DNA from: Paraphaeosphaeria minitans
Taxonomy: Eukaryota; Ascomycota; Dothideomycetes; Pleosporales; Didymosphaeriaceae
Length of the DNA: 64,000 nucleotides
Assembly: GCA_015832175.1 (NCBI GenBank)
Contig: WJXW01000003.1
Location: 310,001-374,000 of the forward strand
Direction: 5' to 3'
The translations under genes were made by a program, and so were the position numbers. Shown in pieces: positions 43,161-52,433 of the stretch; the stretch's first letter is position 1; each line of letters opens with the position of its first letter. The notes below the pieces were generated by a model. It saw only the letters and a list, made by a program, of their open reading frames with translations, was not told the origin of the DNA and searched no databases.

Positions 43161-46100
43161 TCACGTCCACCTCTTGACCCTCGCCTTCACCAACGGCGCA
43201 CCTGTCGCCCCCGGCACAGCCGGTGGCCAACTCCCCGTCACACCCGGCAGTCCCGGGACAGTAACGCTTACCATCGTGCTCGGCACGCTCGCACTCACAG
43301 TCTGCATTTCCACGCTTGATGGAAAGGAAGAGGGTGAGGGTGGGAAGTGGTGCAGATTCCACGGCCCGGGCCAGCGTAGCGTCACACCAGGGGGAACGAC
43401 AGGGCCGGGACCCATGATGAGCGGGAGGATGGATTCGAAGTCTGAGGAGGGGGTGGATGCGGCGTCGGCGGGGAGGGGGAGGTGGTGGGGGAAGATGCCG
43501 TCGCGCCAGGGGGTGGAGGGGGTAGTTGTGGGGATGGACGAGGGGGATGTGGTGTTTGCGGAGGTGGGGGTCGATGTGGAGTTGAGGAGAGGTGCCGAGA
43601 CGGGGGAGGCGATGAAGACAAGGGGTTGCGCTAGGATGGGCTTCTCGTCTTCGTTCTCGTCTTCTTCGAGCTCACTGTCGTCGGAGTCTTCATCTTCGTC
43701 TTCGTCCTCGTCATCCTCTTCATTGTCAGTGGACGTGAGCTCGCTATCCTCATCCTCCTCGCCCTCATCCTCAGCACCCTCAGCGTCATCTTCCTCGTCT
43801 TCAGAGTCAAACCTAATCGCCTCATCCTCACTCCCATCCGGTCCCAAACTCGCCAAACTCGGCGCCGCTCCCGCAACAGAAATATCAGGCACATGCTCCT
43901 CCGACACGACCTCCGTGGCGTTAATCCTAGGGATCGAAACAGACGGCCTCACACCAGGCTGGTTCGGCTGCGGCAGGAAGCCGTCCGGCCCACCGTCCTT
44001 GTCCAATATGCTCGGGTCGGCGGTAACGTCAAGACCGCTCGGCTTGGGAAGCGCACTCGGTGTGGCGTTACCATGGGGACGTAGCTTGCCGATGGGTCCG
44101 GTGATGGCTTCGGCCTCCGGAGGAGTCTCAGGGACGGCGTTGGCGTCTTCAAGCGTGTCGAAGTTGCCCTCGATGGAGTCGAAGAAGCCGGGGGCTGGTT
44201 TGGCCTTGGCCTTTACCGAGGGCGAGAAGCTGGGGATGGGGTCGACAAGAGCAATATCAGGAGTAGGGTGGATCTTGCCTCTGACTGGGGTGGACGCGGG
44301 TTCTTCGAGGGTGTCGCTGGGTCCGGTGCCGGGCGTGCTTGCGTCTATTTCGGAGGGCCTTGACTTGGCCTTTTTGCCCTTTGATGGAGGAGTGGGAAGA
44401 GGGCCTTCGGGGAGATCGTCTGGTGTGTTTGAATCCCCAACTTCTTCGGGAAGAAAGACGGGTGCGTCGGGGTTATCGTGGATGTCTACCGGTGCGGTGC
44501 TGGGCTTAACCGCGGGTCGAGCTCCAGGACTGCTGGGTTCAGGGGAACTGAAGCCTATAGTTGTAGGCTTTACCTTGTGACCTGGCAGGCGCGAGGGAGT
44601 CATTTTGATGACACCATCCACACCAGGAAGAACCGCAGACGGAGGTAGGGTAACTTCAGATAGAGCAGCTGGACGAGGACGGATGTCAAACGCTTGAGCC
44701 TTACCCATTGGGATAGGAACTCCCTGTCTTCCAGCCACCGGCTCCGATGAAACAGTCTGCTTAGCCGCGGCGGCTGGTGCTGTTTTGGTCGAGTGAACAT
44801 CATCTACAATTTGAACTGTCTCGTTCTGCGCCGCCTTGTCGTCGACGCCCCACTTCTGTTCATATTCCGAAGGCTCGTCGCCAAAGATAGCAGTAACGTC
44901 GTCGTCGACTCCGTCTCCACCATTCTTGCCGTCACTGAAGGTGAAATCGGCCGGTGCTTGCGTGTTTGGGATCAGAGGCACAATTTCATGCGGCACTACT
45001 TGCTGAGGCGCTGGGCTTGCAGCGGGAGCCTGAGCAGCAGCTTGACCTGCAGCAGGTTTCGGAGCAGTAGCTGGTACTGGAGCAGCCTGTCGCTTTCGCT
45101 TCTCGCCCCAGTCATATCTTTCGGGACTATTGAACTCCAAGCGACTTGGGTGCGTAAGATGCTTGAGGCCGCCTGGAGAGAGAACATTTAGTTTCTTCAT
45201 AGGCGCGGGAAGTGGCAGAGGTGACTTCTCATCCGACAATAGGTCCGGAAGGGGAAAGTGGTCAGCTAACGGCACCTCTGGAAGGCGAGGGGTTGGGAAT
45301 AACTCTCGCTGCGGCTGGGGTTGTTGCTCTTGTGCCTGCGTCTCAAATTTGTCAGAAACACCCCACTTGGCCTGGTAGTCAGATGGTTCTGCGCCAAAAA
45401 GAGTGGTAGCATCTTCCCCAACGCCATCGCCACCTTTCGAACCATCGCTGAATGTGAAGCCAGCGGGTACAGGGTCGTCCCGCCTGGTCAATGGTGCGGT
45501 AGATGACTGCTTCTCAGCTTCGTCAGAGACTCCCCATTTGGACTCGTAGTCGGATGGCTCGGTTCCAAAGAGTGCCAGCGGGTCCTCGTCAACGCCATCA
45601 CCTCCATTTGAACCATCGCTGAAGATAAAGCCGGTGGGTACAGGGTCGTCCCGCTTGGCCAAAGACGTAATAGAAGGCTGTGGCTGCTTCTCCGCTTCGG
45701 GAGCAACGCCCCACTCCTTCTCGTAATCCGACGGTTCATCGCCGAAGAGCGCAACGGGGTCTTCGTCCACGCCGTCGCCGCCGTTGGTCCCGTCGCTGAA
45801 GTTGAACCCAGCGGGCAGAATGACAGGGTCATCACGCTTGAGCCTGCGCGCTGTAGAGTTGTCCGAACTGTTGTCATCTTCTTCATCTTCTTCTTCCTCG
45901 TCAGCGTTATCGTCATTCGTGTCTTCTTCCTCATCTGCATCGTCGTCACCAGCACCCTCATCTTCATCTTCTTCGTCGCCGGAATCCTCAACATCGTCCT
46001 CCGAATCAGCAGAGGTTCCCTTCGTCGCATCTTTCGTCTCCGTGGCAGCCGGCTTAGCAGGTGCCTTCGAAGGCGTTTTCCCACTGGGCTTCGGGGCCGG

Positions 46101-49100
46101 CTCCTCAGGTTCATCTTCCGCATTCGGGTCAAGCTCCGAAGTGACGTCGTCTTCTTGTTTTCCAAACAGCGCCTGGGCAGCATCTTCAACGCCATCGATG
46201 CCGTTGCCGCCGTCTCCGCCTTCGCTATATTGGAAGCCGGGGACCTGAACATCGTCGCCGTAGTCCTGGCGTTTGCTTAGCTTGCGCTTCTTGGCGGAGA
46301 AATCATCGAAGTCGAAGTCGAAGTCGAAGTCATCAGACGCGTCGTCATCATCTTCTGCGAGTGTGACAAAGTCGGAGGAGTCGGAGTCGGAGTCGGAATC
46401 CTCTGGGGGAGAGCCGTCTGGAGCGTCGCCCGGGCGCGCAAAGGGGCCACCCGGAGCAAAGGGATTGGGGACTTTGGAGATGTTGGGATCGAAGGCGGGT
46501 TGGACGGGCTCATCGCTTTCCTCTTCTTCATCGTCTTCGTCATCGTCAGCGGGGACGGAACGTTCTGAGTCTTCGTCCTCGGAAAATTCGGCTGAGAGAT
46601 TGTTAGCTTGAATCCCATCGATTGAAATCGAACTGCGACTTACCAGTCGAATCATCCTCGTCCTCATCATCTTGCGAGGGGCGCGAGCTAGCTGCATCAT
46701 CGTCAACACTATCGCCACCAGGAACAAGCGAGATCTTTTGGGACGTGAACACCATCAAGTTCCAAAGCTGCGCCTTTAACAACATCTGCGGGGAGAGGCT
46801 TACCTGAAGCATTATTTCCCGCTTTGGGGGAGCTTTTCTTTCCGGTCTCTTCATCATCAAAATCCTCTGGAATAGTAGCGAAGTCATTACCCGGACGATT
46901 CGGCCTCTTCGGGGGGCTCGGTCGTTTAGGGCGCCTCTCGCCATTCCTAGATCCGGGGGGACCATCTTCCGACCCACGTGGCGGCGCGGTAGAACGTTCG
47001 TCATCTTCATCTTCATCTTCATCTTCATCGTCGTCGTCTTCGTCCTCGTTATCCTGGCCACTAACATCCTCAAACACCCCGTCGCCCAAGAAATCCCCAA
47101 AGTCTCCGGGATCGCTCACCCCCTCGCCAGCCTCGCCAGCCTCAACCTGCCTCTTCGCCGCCCACCCCTTCTTGTCCCAGGGAAACTTGGGCCGCTGATG
47201 CACGTACCCGTTTCCATGCGGCTTGCCCTTCTCGCCCGGCAGCAAGCCGCGGACGAGCCGGATGTAGCTCTTTAGCTTCGACAAGATAGGCTCGAATGGG
47301 TCACCCAGCTGGCCCTTGGCGACTTCTTTGTTCATGTCGTCTTTGCCGTACTGGCCGAAGAAGCCCCAGCCGCGCTTCCATTTAGAGTCCCACCCGCTGA
47401 GGCTCTTCAGTTTGTCGAATCTGTCTGAGAGGTCGTCCACTTGCCAGAGGATGTCGTCGAGGGGGTCGCGGTCGGACTTGTTCTTGTCTTTATCGGTGGA
47501 AGAGTAGCCTTTGTCGTTGTCGCCGTCATCACCGCCGAAAGAGAGCCACCAGCCGGAGCTGCGCTTCTGCGATTTTGAATTGTCCTTATTTTTTGAGGCA
47601 GTAAGGTCTTCGATAGTCCAATCGAGCGCGGACTCGAGTTTCTTGAGTTTGTCGGTGATGGTGACAAGCGGGTTTGACGGGACCTCGTTGCTGGGGTTGG
47701 AGCTGGAGATCCACCAGCCGAGTTTGCGCTTGAGAAGCTTGTAAGGCTGGTACCAGTCGTCGGTGTTCTTGTAGCCAGGTACATAGTCACCCTGCTTCCT
47801 CTTCTTGTTTGTAGCCAATTTTGGTACAGCCTTGATGAGGGTGTCTATCGCGTTGATGATGGGGTCGAGGGGGCTTTCGTCTTCGACATCTGAGCGCCAG
47901 CTGCTATCGTCTTGGCCAATATACCATCCGAAGCCTCTCTTACTTACGGACCGACGGTCAAGAGAGCGGCGGTTAATTTTTCCATCACTGCAAGCCATGC
48001 CCTCAGAGACATCGCGGAGCGCGCCGTAGGTCCAAGCATCACCGCCAAATTGGCCACATACCCAGAATTGCTTCTCGCCGTTGCAGAAGAAAGATCCCGG
48101 GGTGCATGCGCCTCCGGGTGCGGCAACGCTGGGGGCGGCTGGAAGAGGAACAGCCTCTGTGGGAAGGGGTTCTACGGGAGTGAATGGTACCGCTACAGAC
48201 GGCTCGTCGAGAGAGATAATGGCCTCTGTAGGAGTATTGGCAGACTCTGTAGTGGAGCTGATGGAGTCTGTGGGAAACAGAGCAAGCAGCTCCGTAGGAA
48301 GCTCCGTCCCACTTGCAGTAGGAGACGCAGTAGCATTTAAAAACGAGGGAGCAGAGAAAGACACGTTGGCTGGGACAGCTGCGTCATCCTTACCAATGAG
48401 ATCAAACAGAGATATCAGCTTAGTCGGTGTAGCAGCAGCGCCTTCGACACTAGAAGAGTCGAAGTCGGCCGTGGGCGTGGCAGCATCTTCCGATGTCGAT
48501 GCCTCGGACTCCGGGGCCGCAGTGCTCTCGGTATTTTCACCTGGAAAAGAGATACCCAGTCAGTAGTTAGTTCAAAACGATTGCAGCCATCCACTTACTA
48601 GTCTTCGTCTTGCTGTGCTTAGCCTTCTTCGACTTTGAAAACGAGCTGTGCTTCTTCTTCTCCACCTTCTGCCGATCGTAAATGCCACTGAATCCATCAC
48701 TCTCGTCATCAGAAGCATATTCGTCATCAGAAGTGTAATCGTCATCATCGAAATCGCCAATGATATCTTTCAGGAAGTCGGGAAGTGCATCGATGTCATC
48801 ATATTCGCCATAGTTCTCCCTGTTGGCAGCATCGCTGGAAGACTCTTCGACCTCGAACGACGGCGTCTTAGTGTGATCCTTGGGACGGCTTGAATGGCGC
48901 GAATCATCGTCGGAATCTGAATCATCGGAGGAGGCCTTGGCCTGGTGGTTGATGAAGTCGTAGTCAGGTGCGTTTGGAGCACCAGTTGGCTCTTCGTCGT
49001 CCGGCGGCTCGCGAGAGTGGATTTGCTGCGTCCTGAAATTGGGATCGGAGCCCTGGTCAGGTCTGTATTTGGAAAACTCGCCAGCGCTGGTGCGTTGCGT

Positions 49101-50562
49101 TCCCACGCGTGGGGAATGCTTGCCCTTCTTCGGGCTGGGGACGTTTTCTCTTTCGCTGTGGGAAACGCTGTATGTATGATCGCCCTCGCCGATGCTTTCG
49201 AGGTACGCAGCAAGCTCTTTCTCGACGTTTGTCATTGGGGCTTTGTGGGACGCGGAGGATGGATTAGATTTCCCGCTAGACGACTTCCCGGCGTTACTGC
49301 TGCTGCCCCCTGAAGATGAGCCAGAGTTCATGGCCATGGGGTGCGACTGCGCACTGCCGCCACTTGAAGAACCCACGTCGGGATGCCACTGTCCATCGTT
49401 GCCTCCCATGGAGCCGCTAGAAGACGATGAAGATCCAGAGTTTCCTGACGATGCCGCGCCGCCGTACTTCTCGGGATGCCACATGCCATCGTCGCCGCCG
49501 GTAGAGCCACCCGAAGACGCCGAGGATCCAGAATTTCCGGACGACGAAGAAGATCCAGAGCTACCTGATGAAGACGACCCAGAGCTACCCGACGAAGACG
49601 ACCCGGAGCCAGCATTTTTCTGGTCAGGATGCCACATCCCGTCTTGGCCAGCCGAAGAGCCGCTCGAGAAAGACGTAGACCCAGAGTCGCTAGAACCCGC
49701 CGACCCAGCAGACGCCCCAGAGCTACTCGAGTCGGAGCTCGAAGACCCCGCCGCTGTCCTCCCGACGCCAGAGCACGATCCTTTCCTTCGCATGATCCTC
49801 GAAGACGACGCGCTGAGCCCGTCGCCGTACACAACGTCCGAACCGGGGTTGTCGAACACCACGTCGACCGTCTCTTTTGTCGCGCAATCGTTCACGCTTT
49901 TCAGATTCGCGACGTACAGGTCTGGGTACAGTGACAGAGCGGCCTGCGCTACCGCCGCGCTGGAGGCCTTCGTGGAGGTGCGCTGGCGGGGAGATGAGGA
50001 GCTGCTGGCGCCGATGAGGTCGACGACTGCGCAGTTCATGTACATTTCTCTGTTGCCGATTTTGTTGAACCTACGTCCAGCGTCAGCATGTCTTGCTATC
50101 CCATTGCTCCGCTGACGGGAGTGAAACCTACCATGTCCACGCTAGTAAACACTTTTCGGCTGTTGGCACGTCGTTTGGAATCGTGAACTCATACTCCTTC
50201 TCAATCGGACAGTTCCCTTCCATGCTCTTAATCACGTTGAAATGTGTGTAGTCGCATGATAAGCTAATCTGGCAGCTGCCACCGCCGTGCGTGGCACCGC
50301 CCATGAGCCGGAGCGGATACGTTTTGCCGGCTTGATATTGAGCCACTGTGGTCAGTGGGGTGTTCCATTGGTATCCTTTGCAGGCGAAGTCGCTGCCATC
50401 AGGGTGGAGCGGGGTGAGGATGTTGTAGTCTTTTGGCTCTGCGGTGCGGTTTGAGTGCGGGTCACGCAGGGGCGAGGGCTCTTGCATCTGCATGTGGGCG
50501 AGAGCGCCCGGGATCAAGAGCGGCAGCGCACATAGCGTGCGGAGAGACGTGTGTCGAGGCAT
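43161..50562 (-). CDS. Giant secreted AA11 LPMO fused to a chitin-binding-like module and dibasic-punctuated repeats
   Basis: Five reverse-strand exons: 50562-50132, 50070-48599, 48540-46804, 46691-46644 and 46591-43161. They total 7,119 nt, closing exactly in frame to 2,372 residues. A signal peptide (MPRHTSLRTLCALPLLIPGALA) precedes His23, the histidine-brace N terminus. AA11 blocks follow: DGSDFACKGY, THGGGSCQISL (second His) and LAWTWFNKIGNREMYMNC (axial Tyr). After the catalytic domain (to about residue 240) come a Ser/Gly linker with three DG[MQ]WHP motifs, an acidic region, and a Cys-rich X278/CBM-like module (ACTPGSFFCNG, WVCGQFGGDAW, GMACSDGKI). Then follow four KR-delimited GW-rich units, a long acidic segment, and five FSDG/GGDGVDEDP units, four behind KR or RR. 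A Pro/Asp/Glu-rich tail ends KARVKRWT. The LPMO part should oxidise chitin. Processing of the repeats by Kex2 is inferred. Confidence 0.85.
44850..46275 (-). repeat. Five FSDG/GGDGVDEDP repeat units with dibasic leaders
   Basis: In exon 5 the units are introduced by SKR-QDYGDD (diverged), LKR-DDPVILPAGFNF, AKR-DDPVPTGFIF, TRR-DDPVPAGFTF, and a last one after KRKRQAAP with ADFTFSDG. Copies 2-4 share SDGxxGGDGVxED, FGxEPSDYxxxWGV and lie 57-61 residues apart. Confidence 0.88.
47155..47941 (-). repeat. Four KR-delimited GW-rich repeat units (plus a fifth KR)
   Basis: In exon 3, KR occurs before GFGWYIGQDD, KLGWWISSSN, SSGWWLSFGG and GWGFFGQYG, and again before QVEAGE. Units are 55-75 residues. 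Each has an aromatic start, a hydrophilic stretch, then a helix-like segment starting (D/N)P: DPIINAIDTLIKAV, NPLVTITDKLKKL, DPLDDILWQVDDL, DPFEPILSKLKSY. Sequence is diverged but the plan repeats. Confidence 0.8.
49379..49650 (-). repeat. Three Gly-Asp-Gly-Met-Trp-His-Pro motifs in the LPMO linker
   Basis: Within exon 2 of the giant gene the Ser/Gly linker carries AGQDGMWHPDQKN, GGDDGMWHPEKYG and GGNDGQWHPDVGS, separated by poly-Ser/Gly of 30-45 residues. The motif is the only aromatic content of the linker. Confidence 0.85.
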
Positions 50563-51102: not shown

Positions 51103-51534
51103 TCAGTCCTCCAGCAAATCCGCAACGTCTTTCAGGTCCTCCTGCTCCTGCTCATCCTGCAGACGCTTCTCCTCCTTCTCTAGCGTCTCCCTGATGAACT
51201 TCCTCTGCCTGACACGAGCCTTTTTGCCCCACTGTCCTGGCTTGGCCTCGGTCTTCTCCTCCTCATCATCGCTGTCGACACCCGGTATCGCAACCTTCTT
51301 GCCTCCCCGTAAGTCGTTCGGGTGCAGCGCTGCGCCGGTACCAGCTGCTTCTGCCGCTTCTTTCTCGTGTTGCCGCTCCTGCGCACGGGCACCGAGTTTC
51401 ATGAGGTACGGTCTAAGGAGCATGTAGGCGCCCACGATCCATACGAGGCGGATCCAGCCTTCAGGCTTCAGGCGCGCAAACGAAGCCATGACGTTGCGGT
51501 AGCGGCTATCGAAGAATTCTTGTACGTTCTCCAT
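51103..51534 (-). CDS. PGA2: PGA2-like ER membrane protein
   Basis: A single reverse-strand exon of 143 residues. I start at 51534 (MENVQEFFDSRYRNVMASFA); the frame is open to 51630, but that upstream part is basic leader-like DNA. One hydrophobic helix, WIRLVWIVGAYMLLRPYLM, lies near the N terminus, followed by charged coiled-coil sequence (ARAQERQHEKEAAEA) and a highly charged tail (WGKKARVRQRKFIRETLEKE). This is the plan of the fungal Pga2 family, needed in yeast for maturation of Gas1 and alkaline phosphatase in the early secretory pathway. It is divergent from MHF1, with about 450 bp between starts. Confidence 0.85.
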   Translation of the reverse strand: MENVQEFFDSRYRNVMASFARLKPEGWIRLVWIVGAYMLLRPYLMKLGARAQERQHEKEAAEAAGTGAALHPNDLRGGKKVAIPGVDSDDEEEKTEAKPGQWGKKARVRQRKFIRETLEKEEKRLQDEQEQEDLKDVADLLED

Positions 51535-51981
51535 CGCGATTTGAGAGTGAGGGTGAGGGATGCGTGTGTTGTGGCGGCGACCGTTCAGGGTCAGGAACCG
51601 TGTGAATAGCTTCTTGCGTTGCTCCTTCAATACAGCACGCCGATGTAGGGTGCGGTGGTGATGTGTGGTGGATTGAATTAGGTAGAGTGCTCCGTCGCTT
51701 TTCTGTCTAGTCCGAGCAGGTAGGGTGGTGTGCGCAGCGCTCTTTTATACGTCTCCTCTATGCGCCTTGAAAAATCGAAATTGAGTGTCCGAGCCAAAAC
51801 AAGTCGCGGTCCCAAAATCGCGCGGCGGGCCCAAGTCCCAAACGGCGGCAGAACCATGGGCGGTCAAGTCAACGATAAAAGCATCTACCAATCGGCTCTT
51901 CATCGGGCCGGCGCGTCCCCTACGCGTCGCGCTCCCCACTCACGTTAGACTGTCGCTCAAGCGCTCGTCAACACTGCGGCA
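51535..51981. promoter_or_regulatory. Shared divergent promoter region, PGA2 and MHF1
   Basis: About 450 bp between two start codons on opposite strands, with no coding sequence of its own. No specific regulatory site is recognised. Confidence 0.45.
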
Positions 51982-52433
51982 ATGGCCTCGAGCGACGATG
52001 CGGCGGATCGCAAGGACGTAATGACAGCCCTCAACAGTCTATTTCTCGAAGAAGTCCAGCTAATGCAACCCAGCGGCTCCAATCCGCCCTCTGGTATACA
52101 ATCGGGCAATTCGTCGACAACGAAGGCGCAGAGGACTTCAATGCGACGCCGCAGTTCATCGGCGCCCTGACCGAGCTCGTCTACACCAAGATCGAGAACT
52201 CGGCCAAAGACCTTGAGTTGTTCTCCAAGCATGCCGGGAGGAAGGTTATCAATGCCGACGATGTCATGCTGTTGACGAGGCGGAACGAGGCGCTGGAAGA
52301 GACGTTGAAGAGAGAGTTGGATCGCATGAGGGCGGCTGAAGGACGCGTGGAGGAACAGTCCAAGAAGAGAGGAAGGCCTAGTGGTGCTGGAGCGCGAGCG
52401 GGTGCGAAGGGGAAAGGGAAGGCGAAGGCATAA
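51982..52433 (+). CDS. MHF1: CENP-S/MHF1 histone-fold protein
   Basis: Two exons, 51982-52017 and 52074-52433, give 131 residues. The intron (52018-52073) starts GTAATG, has GCTAATG as branch site and ends ACCCAG. The junction gives MASSDDAADRKD-RLQSALWY. Family blocks: LQSALWYTIGQFVD, NATPQFIGALTELVYTKIEN, SAKDLELFSKHAGRKVINAD, DVMLLTRRNEALEETLKREL, a complete histone fold. The C-terminal tail is basic (KKRGRPSGAGARAGAKGKGK), an AT-hook-like DNA-contact region. CENP-S pairs with CENP-X in the inner kinetochore and with the Fanconi-type helicase Mph1 at stalled forks. The MUS7/MMS22 gene in this window also acts at stalled forks, but no functional clustering is implied. Confidence 0.95.

What the first reader, a model, noticed from the sequence alone, without database searches (positions are those of the whole stretch)
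43161..50562. A chitin-type LPMO fused to a Kex2-like repeat precursor in one 2,372-residue secreted protein
Five exons with GT-AG introns close exactly in frame from an AA11 LPMO signal peptide to the stop at 43161. AA11 enzymes are normally short, or carry one C-terminal binding module. Here the catalytic domain and chitin-binding-like module are followed by about 1,600 residues with two different repeat families introduced by KR/RR. This joins a wall-degrading or wall-remodelling oxidase with a peptide-precursor layout. Possible roles are delivering peptides to chitin surfaces, self-protection of the wall, or host/mate signalling. Function is inference.
Basis: partly seen in the sequence, partly recalled or inferred. 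Interest (0 to 1): 0.88.

Follow-up and report, generated by a model that had tools for sequence, protein, structure and literature searches.

The report
Chitin oxidase with kexin-cut peptide tail
A fungal chitin-oxidising enzyme appears to be made as the front part of a giant secreted precursor whose tail of about 1,500 residues carries conserved cutting marks in front of small repeats, a combination of two known designs whose peptides, if they are really released, are unknown.

Summary
Five exons with GT-AG introns give one 2,372-residue frame; an NCBI entry from Paraphaeosphaeria minitans has the same length and differs at 4 residues. Residues 23-233 are an AA11 LPMO with intact copper site. 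Residues 781-826 resemble X278. About 1,546 residues follow, with two KR/RR-started repeat families. Relatives with long tails form one 100/100 branch whose named members are Pleosporales. In 23 such tails KR outnumbers RK 140 to 49, against 66 to 72 in control proteins. Gln follows KR in 26 of 118 cases; background is 4.5%. Acrodontium, on another branch, has AA11 followed by near-identical KR-separated repeats. The Kex2-type layout is well supported as sequence; cleavage and function are inference. Against: no transcript, an uncertain intron 3/4 join with an alternative open frame, no extra conservation after KR in Kalmusia. Best reading: an LPMO co-secreted with peptides that act in the wall. 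Novelty: new variant, joining LPMOs with long tails and Kex2-processed repeat proteins.

The parts
50132..50562 (-). exon 1: signal-peptide-like start (residues 1-22, by inspection) and first part of the AA11 domain with His23 and His92
   Evidence: residue positions; PDB match
48599..50070 (-). exon 2: rest of AA11 domain (to about residue 240, base 49782; Glu152, Tyr154), then Ser/Gly and acidic linker to residue 634, no intron between
49380..49643 (-). three DGxWHP motifs (residues 287, 338, 369) in the linker; a DGxW[HQ] motif occurs in 16 of 25 proteins checked
46804..48540 (-). exon 3: linker, X278-like module and repeat family 1
47966..48112 (-). X278-like cysteine module, residues 778-826 (profile match 781-826), followed at once by RR/RR/KR
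   Evidence: 15.3 bits with a profile of six own-genome AA11 paralogs; best of 2,000 shuffles 5.8 bits
47150..47941 (-). repeat family 1: four units from KR835, KR905, KR960, KR1023 (Gly/aromatic head, then Pro and a predicted helix), to KR1097
   Evidence: helices in a low-confidence model
46644..46691 (-). exon 4 (48 nt); flanking introns 3 and 4 are the least certain joins
43161..46591 (-). exon 5: acidic spacers, repeat family 2, Pro-rich part, C-terminus to stop
46116..46274 (-). repeat family 2, first copy: KR1336 QDYGDDVQVPGFQYSEGGDGGNGIDG..., kept in Didymosphaeria and Kalmusia
45315..45839 (-). repeat family 2, three tandem copies from KR1481, KR1542, RR1599 (DDPV..GFxFSDGSxGGDGVxED..LFG; start-to-start spacing 61 and 57 residues)
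44814..44969 (-). repeat family 2, fifth copy (about residues 1771-1822) without KR directly before it
43368..43508 (-). C-terminal motif WRDGIF ... GPGPVVPPGVTLRWP; its pieces recur in relatives' tails (9, 16 and 11 of 25 for the W.DG, [GA]PGP..P and WP patterns), evidence that the end belongs to the same gene
51103..51744 (-). upstream neighbour, PGA2 family; gene models P0007 and P0077 run PGA2 and this AA11 together, so the neighbourhood is shared

Best explanation
The gene encodes a secreted pre-pro-protein with two kinds of product. Signal peptidase frees His23, the first ligand of the copper site, giving an AA11 LPMO of the AfAA11A type (chitin active) with an X278-like module (sequence shown, activity inferred). 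In the Golgi the kexin cuts the tail at the conserved KR/RR sites (sites shown, cleavage inferred). If all sites were cut, this would release the LPMO part, four helix-bearing peptides of 46-74 residues, acidic spacers, and four pieces of 57-142 residues that start with the Asp/Gly-rich repeat. The simplest role is that enzyme and peptides reach the growing chitin wall in a fixed ratio, the LPMO loosening chitin and the peptides coating, plugging or assembling in the wall in the manner of Ustilago Rep1 (inference).
For: AA11: 7p3u E 2.2e-54, 4mah E 1.1e-34, ligands kept. KR/RR in 23 long-group tails 218 against 80 expected, KK/RK 119 against 106; in 84 other AA11 tails KR/RR 83 against 54. KR:RK 140:49 in the 23 tails, 118:35 in the 20 without fused models; KR>RK in 21 of 23, ties in 2; control 66:72. 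Gln after KR 26 of 118, after RR 7 of 62, after KK 1 of 71, after RK 2 of 35, background 0.045. Gap-free aligned KR/RR kept 10 of 14 in Kalmusia, 13 of 17 in Didymosphaeria, 9 of 11 in P0049; KK/RK kept dibasic 2 of 12, 5 of 15, 6 of 10; Fisher p 0.008 and 0.031 for the first two. AA11 plus KR repeats on another branch, P0040/P0041. One P_proprotein (kexin-type) match in the genome. The repeat families match only this gene in the own genome, apart from a weak X278 match.
Against: No proteome or transcript. KR/RR enrichment by shuffle is not significant in every relative: 22 of 28 proteins had p<0.05. The 20 residues after KR are more conserved than background against Didymosphaeria (0.76 vs 0.58) but not against Kalmusia (0.33 vs 0.32). 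Repeat units vary in number and sequence between families. Of six helix segments tested two are amphipathic at p<0.05. The structure model is poor, mean pLDDT 43 from a 4-row alignment. RR also lies at the AA11-linker border (239), so not every site need be cut, and family 2 sites would give pieces of uneven length (142, 61, 57 and 128 residues).
Confidence: 0.6

Rival explanations
1. The tail is cut by kexin but the peptides have no job of their own: it is a secretion, solubility or holding tail that is shed so that the LPMO-X278 part is free.
For: In five of seven own-genome AA11 paralogs examined the X278 module is followed within three residues by KR/RR and a short end piece; tail sequences diverge fast; acidic low-complexity spacers are long.
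Against: Repeat units with a kept head and predicted helix, a near-invariant KRQDYGDDVxVPGF peptide in three genera, and near-identical KR repeats in P0040/P0041 are more than a shed tail needs.
Confidence: 0.2
2. The tail stays on as a very long disordered C-terminal region that anchors or spaces the LPMO in the wall; dibasic sites are incidental or cut by other proteases.
For: Long disordered C-terminal regions are widespread in LPMOs including AA11 (PMC8615602, passages); in the AlphaFold model of a 331-residue piece 199 residues have pLDDT under 50, though the shallow alignment alone could cause that.
Against: KR:RK asymmetry, Gln after KR and site retention are specific to kexin-type sites.
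Confidence: 0.13
3. Two or more genes have been joined by gene prediction, for example with a break near 46.7 kb.
For: Splice choice at introns 3/4 is not unique; without intron 3 the upstream frame stops at 46709 and the downstream frame is open from 46754 with ATGs near 46700; the Didymosphaeria model differs there; some relatives' models are fused with neighbours (P0007, P0077, probably P0006).
Against: In the spliced frame no Met lies between residues 423 and 816 (48.3 kb) or between 1037 and 1694 (46.6 kb); the start near 46700 is basic and not signal-like by inspection; models P0002 and P0003 hold both halves in order; tail-end motifs sit with AA11 in one model in several relatives.
Confidence: 0.07

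Closest known systems
LPMOs with disordered C-terminal regions (dCTR), AA11 (PMC8615602, abstract and passages read)
   Same: AA11 catalytic domain followed by a long low-complexity tail, in 8% of AA11 cases with X278 between
   Different: there: median 152 residues for AA11, 'kexin' and 'dibasic' 0 times in the main text; here: about 1,546 residues after the module with KR-started repeat families
KEX2-processed repeat proteins (KEPs; PMC6339444, PMC7329392, abstracts and passages read)
   Same: predicted signal peptide, at least three similar fragments separated by KR/RR
   Different: here the repeats sit behind a catalytic LPMO domain; 'monooxygenase' occurs 0 times in either main text. Some KEP types there carry Pfam motifs, one of them Chitin_bind_1 in Neocallimastix and Piromyces, so domain-bearing KEPs are not new as such; supplements were not readable, so AA11 proteins may be in their lists
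CWR-1 and other AA11-linker-X278 enzymes (PMC9550227, passages read)
   Same: AA11, Gly/Ser-rich linker, X278-like module
   Different: those end with X278; here the KR array and a further C-terminal part follow
Ustilago maydis Rep1 repellents (reference titles and one discussion passage seen; details recalled)
   Same: kexin-released surface peptides, wall associated
   Different: no enzyme in the same precursor (recalled); no sequence similarity tested
Ustiloxin-type RiPP precursors (passages in PMC7329392)
   Same: KR-separated repeats
   Different: units here are tens of residues longer than the 8-14 quoted there, and no UstYa (DUF3328) gene lies near

Membership tests
AA11 LPMO | sequence match to solved AA11 enzymes | tested here: met
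   7p3u (AfAA11A per PMC12186267) E 2.2e-54; 4mah E 1.1e-34; 9exj E 2.1e-34
AA11 LPMO | His1 at the mature N-terminus, second His, axial Tyr with Glu | tested here: met
   H23, H92, E152, Y154 aligned, positions; the cleavage before H23 is by inspection, no signal peptide predictor was available
AA11 LPMO | oxidation of chitin | not testable with these tools
   needs enzyme assay
X278 module | Cys/Gly pattern of the module in AA11 enzymes | tested here: inconclusive
   15.3 bits with a six-sequence profile, shuffles at most 5.8; Didymosphaeria's copy 13.8 and P0049's 12.2, Kalmusia's only 3.5; by eye closer to the TPG-type module that precedes a second X278 in P0025 and others; the CAZy model itself is not held
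KEX2-processed repeat protein (KEP) | signal peptide | tested here: inconclusive
   N-terminal hydrophobic stretch is the most hydrophobic window of the protein; no predictor run
KEX2-processed repeat protein (KEP) | at least three similar fragments between KEX2 sites (pipeline minimum in PMC6339444) | tested here: met
   fragments starting after KR1336, KR1481, KR1542 and RR1599, each bounded by dibasic sites, of 142, 61, 57 and 128 residues; the published pipeline itself was not run
KEX2-processed repeat protein (KEP) | cleavage by kexin in vivo | not testable with these tools
   indirect site statistics only
Ustiloxin-type cyclic RiPP | UstYa/DUF3328 gene close by | tested here: not met
   none of the 27 matches is in the window; nearest on this contig about 166 kb from the gene

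The most novel reading that the evidence does not exclude
Pleosporales (and separately an Acrodontium lineage) have turned the tail of a chitin-active AA11 LPMO into a polyprotein: one gene yields a wall-opening oxidase and, by kexin, a set of wall-acting or signalling peptides (several with N-terminal Gln, so possibly pyroglutamate), delivered together to hyphal chitin.
Probability: 0.35. Interest if true: 0.8.

Novelty: new variant of a known kind. Interest (0 to 1): 0.62.

Why it matters
As far as I know, long disordered LPMO tails have no settled function. If this clade's tails are peptide precursors, part of that question becomes testable by ordinary secretome mass spectrometry. It would also give an enzyme-bearing class of Kex2-processed repeat proteins and a source of uncharacterised fungal peptides in well-studied genera such as Pyrenophora, Parastagonospora, Plenodomus and Didymella.

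Tried and rejected
Intron 3 acceptor at 46709 together with intron 4 breaks the frame; replaced by 46692. Pfam on four pieces of the protein gave nothing above cut-off; the AA11 part only reached DUF7492 at E 0.048 and GLEYA at 0.19, so AA11 rests on PDB sequence matches. Joined-gene artefact: considered, not favoured. Copies of the repeats elsewhere in the own genome: none beyond this gene and a weak X278 match (only the best candidates are scored); Acrodontium-type repeat: no match. Excess conservation after KR: seen against Didymosphaeria, not against Kalmusia. The automatic repeat-family scan also lists many false families, made by overlapping windows or fused models (for example P0077, P0007, P0052, the Colletotrichum models); only non-overlapping ones are used. 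The GGDG unit pattern found 28 units in 12 of 88 proteins, 16 with KR/RR within 40 residues upstream, against 0.22 of random tail positions in those 12; the pattern missed two of five copies in this protein. Structure model too poor (mean pLDDT 43) for a fold search, so none was run. Plasmid collection: no match. Cyclic RiPP cluster: no UstYa near. A role specific to mycoparasitism was set aside because the branch includes fungi of other lifestyles (recalled).

Counts that left rows out: the long group of 27 proteins was picked by me from names and AA11 similarity, not by KR count. The dibasic counts used proteins with a recognisable AA11 active-site motif and at least 100 tail residues; 68 of 196 lacked these, among them 4 of the 27 (P0009, P0016, P0019, P0057), leaving 23. 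Twenty-seven models that looked fused or off-group to me were excluded from 'others' and used whole as the 66:72 control. Gln counts used 20 proteins, without P0006, P0007 and P0077. Several unnamed proteins that look like the long group (P0069, P0071-P0073, P0078, P0083) stayed among 'others'. The tree used 50 rows that I chose from 159 full domains plus two own-genome paralogs; 8 of the 27 had incomplete domains and are not in it. Protein searches only see candidates of 0.55 to 1.75 times the query length, and two of the three scored only the best 8,000 or so candidates.
Full report
What is there. The minus strand at 50562-43161 holds five exons (50562-50132, 50070-48599, 48540-46804, 46691-46644, 46591-43161) whose introns of 61, 58, 112 and 52 nt all start GT and end AG; together they give 2,372 residues with a single stop. 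A database protein of the same length, hypothetical protein PMIN07_000898 of Paraphaeosphaeria minitans, differs at four positions (580, 589, 1424, 1911), none in the AA11 domain, so the window is from that species or one extremely close. Abstracts I saw call this fungus (also Coniothyrium minitans) a mycoparasite of Sclerotinia. The genome held is 47.45 Mb in 30 contigs.

The enzyme. Residues 23-233 match AA11 lytic polysaccharide monooxygenases of known structure: 7p3u E 2.2e-54, 9exj E 2.1e-34, 4mah E 1.1e-34. 7P3U is AfAA11A, a clade I enzyme active on insoluble chitin, according to PMC12186267 (passages). His23, His92, Glu152 and Tyr154 (positions) correspond to the AA11 copper site described there. 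Like 7p3u, and unlike 4mah, the query lacks an insertion after the CP(I/L) stretch (alignments). Activity on chitin is therefore likely, but inferred.

The module. Residues 778-826 form a Cys/Gly module. A profile of the X278 modules of six AA11 paralogs of the same genome scores it at 15.3 bits; the best of 2,000 shuffles of this protein scores 5.8; the Kalmusia copy scores only 3.5. By eye it is nearest to a 'TPG' type of the module that stands before a second, terminal X278 in relatives such as P0025. Formal X278 membership is left open. In five of seven paralogs examined (L002, L003, L006, L007, L008; not L004, L005; 7 of 12 other AA11 matches in the genome) the X278 module is followed by KR or RR within three residues and then a short end piece. 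In this protein the same place reads GKINRRSLDRRSVSKRG, so the KR series begins where those AA11-X278 enzymes have their dibasic end.

The tail. About 1,546 residues follow. Family 1 has four units starting at KR835, KR905, KR960 and KR1023, each with a Gly/aromatic head, then a Pro-containing stretch and a predicted helix (the model is of low confidence, mean pLDDT 43). Of six helix segments tested two are amphipathic beyond shuffles at p<0.05 (860-876 and 1051-1067); the others give 0.07, 0.15, 0.53 and 0.55. Family 2 has units after KR1336, KR1481, KR1542 and RR1599 and a copy near 1771 without KR; ten columns are invariant in all five. Acidic spacers lie between. If kexin cut after every KR/RR, family 1 would give pieces of 46, 55, 63 and 74 residues, and family 2 pieces of 142, 61, 57 and 128. 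Near the C-terminus lies WRDGIF...GPGPVVPPGV...WP. Of 25 proteins checked with patterns, 16 hold [GA]PGP..P, 11 the WP pattern, 9 the W.DG pattern, 18 an upstream AYL pattern and 16 DGxW[HQ].

Relatives. One search found 9 proteins (8 besides the P. minitans entry), 83 (four of them already) and 140 (120 listed). Those that I grouped as long-tailed form one branch with 100/100 support among the 52 rows placed in a tree (19 rows). Every named member of my group of 27 is in Pleosporales: Paraphaeosphaeria, Didymosphaeria, Kalmusia, Plenodomus, Neocucurbitaria, Boeremia, Periconia, Decorospora, Ascochyta, Paraphoma, Parastagonospora, Pyrenophora, Didymella and one 'Pleosporales sp.' (order membership of the genera recalled). 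The upstream PGA2 gene (51103-51744) is also next to the AA11 gene in Boeremia and Pyrenophora tritici-repentis, as shown by gene models that run the two together.

Is the KR pattern real? By single-protein shuffles, 22 of 28 proteins have more KR/RR in the tail than expected at p<0.05; the other six are P0016, P0019, P0020, P0025, P0067 and P0077. Summed: 218 KR/RR in 23 long-group tails against 80.3 expected, while KK/RK gives 119 against 105.8; in 84 other AA11 tails 83 against 53.7 and 34 against 27.2. A cleaner control uses KR and RK, which have the same composition: 140 against 49 in the 23 tails, 118 against 35 in the 20 without fused models; KR exceeds RK in 21 of 23 proteins, ties in 2 and is never lower; in the other AA11 tails 41 against 23. 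In 27 fused or off-group proteins the count is 66 to 72. Gln follows KR in 26 of 118 cases and RR in 7 of 62, but KK in 1 of 71 and RK in 2 of 35; Gln makes up 4.5% of these tails. Retention: of 14 KR/RR sites aligned without gaps in Kalmusia 10 are kept, against 2 of 12 KK/RK; in Didymosphaeria 13 of 17 against 5 of 15; in P0049 9 of 11 against 6 of 10 (Fisher p 0.008 and 0.031 for the first two). Rows within a clade are related, so these numbers overstate independence; the direction is uniform. Against: the 20 residues after KR are not more conserved than background in Kalmusia (0.33 vs 0.32), though they are in Didymosphaeria (0.76 vs 0.58).

An independent case. P0040 (Acrodontium crateriforme, 770 residues) and the unnamed P0041 carry AA11 followed by about four near-identical KR-started units, spaced 26-30 residues, of the form KR-DSTATPASxxTSGLNLDSILEPVMAII, with a more divergent unit beside them. 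In the tree they sit apart from the long group. The KR-repeat tail of AA11 enzymes has therefore arisen, or been kept, in at least two branches.

Known background. LPMO tails predicted to be disordered are widespread, from 30 to over 1,000 residues, with a median of 152 for AA11; 8% of AA11 ones carry X278 before the tail (PMC8615602, abstract and passages). KEX2-processed repeat proteins are defined by a signal peptide, internal repeats and KEX2 sites between them, with at least three fragments (PMC6339444 and PMC7329392, abstracts and passages). Some KEP types carry Pfam motifs, one of them Chitin_bind_1, so KEPs with a recognised domain are not new in themselves. KR and RR as canonical Kex2 sites: PMC8528282 (passages). 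I found no paper joining AA11 and Kex2-type tails: searches for AA11+LPMO+Kex2 (one paper, on Geotrichum, listing only), lytic polysaccharide monooxygenase+kexin (three listings, not opened) and AA11+lytic polysaccharide monooxygenase+Pleosporales (seven listings, not opened). The library holds open-licence PMC papers only, and the KEP supplements could not be read.

Mechanism. Shown: domain order, site pattern, conservation. Inferred: secretion, kexin cutting (the genome has one P_proprotein, kexin-type, match), release of peptides, and their place of action. Occurrence across an order with many lifestyles (recalled), a tail found once in this genome and a shared neighbourhood favour a general wall function over a host-specific one. 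Rep1-like wall coating is the nearest functional analogue; the link is by layout, not by sequence.

Limits. No transcript or proteome evidence. The join near residues 1213-1230 is uncertain: part of this intron 3/exon 4/intron 4 stretch is read in another frame in the Didymosphaeria model, and the exon 5 frame is open from 46754 without introns, so a second gene starting near 46.7 kb is not excluded by sequence alone. No signal-peptide or disorder predictor was available.

Noticed in passing
L002, L003, L006, L007, L008 (own-genome AA11 paralogs): KR or RR follows the X278 module within three residues, then a short C-terminal piece (5 of 7 paralogs examined); a trimmed C-terminus may be common in AA11-X278 enzymes.
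   Followed up: partly
49380-49643: Three DGxWHP motifs in the Ser/Gly linker; a DGxW[HQ] motif occurs in 16 of 25 proteins checked. His/Trp content could suit metal or chitin contact; unknown.
   Followed up: partly
49191-49217 (residues 429-437): A short ELxAYLxxL helix-like motif; the pattern occurs in 18 of 25 proteins checked; role unknown.
   Followed up: no
P0006, P0007, P0077: Public gene models run this AA11 gene together with neighbours: PGA2 upstream in P0007 and P0077; a similar basic-rich C-terminal part in P0006 and P0007 looks like a downstream gene (by eye; it has no match in this window).
   Followed up: partly
51879-52433: CENP-S histone-fold protein (Pfam) on the plus strand beside PGA2.
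   Followed up: no
L004, L005, L007, L008 and further C15/C19 matches: A group of closely similar AA11-X278 paralogs lies on contigs C15 and C19 of this genome.
   Followed up: no
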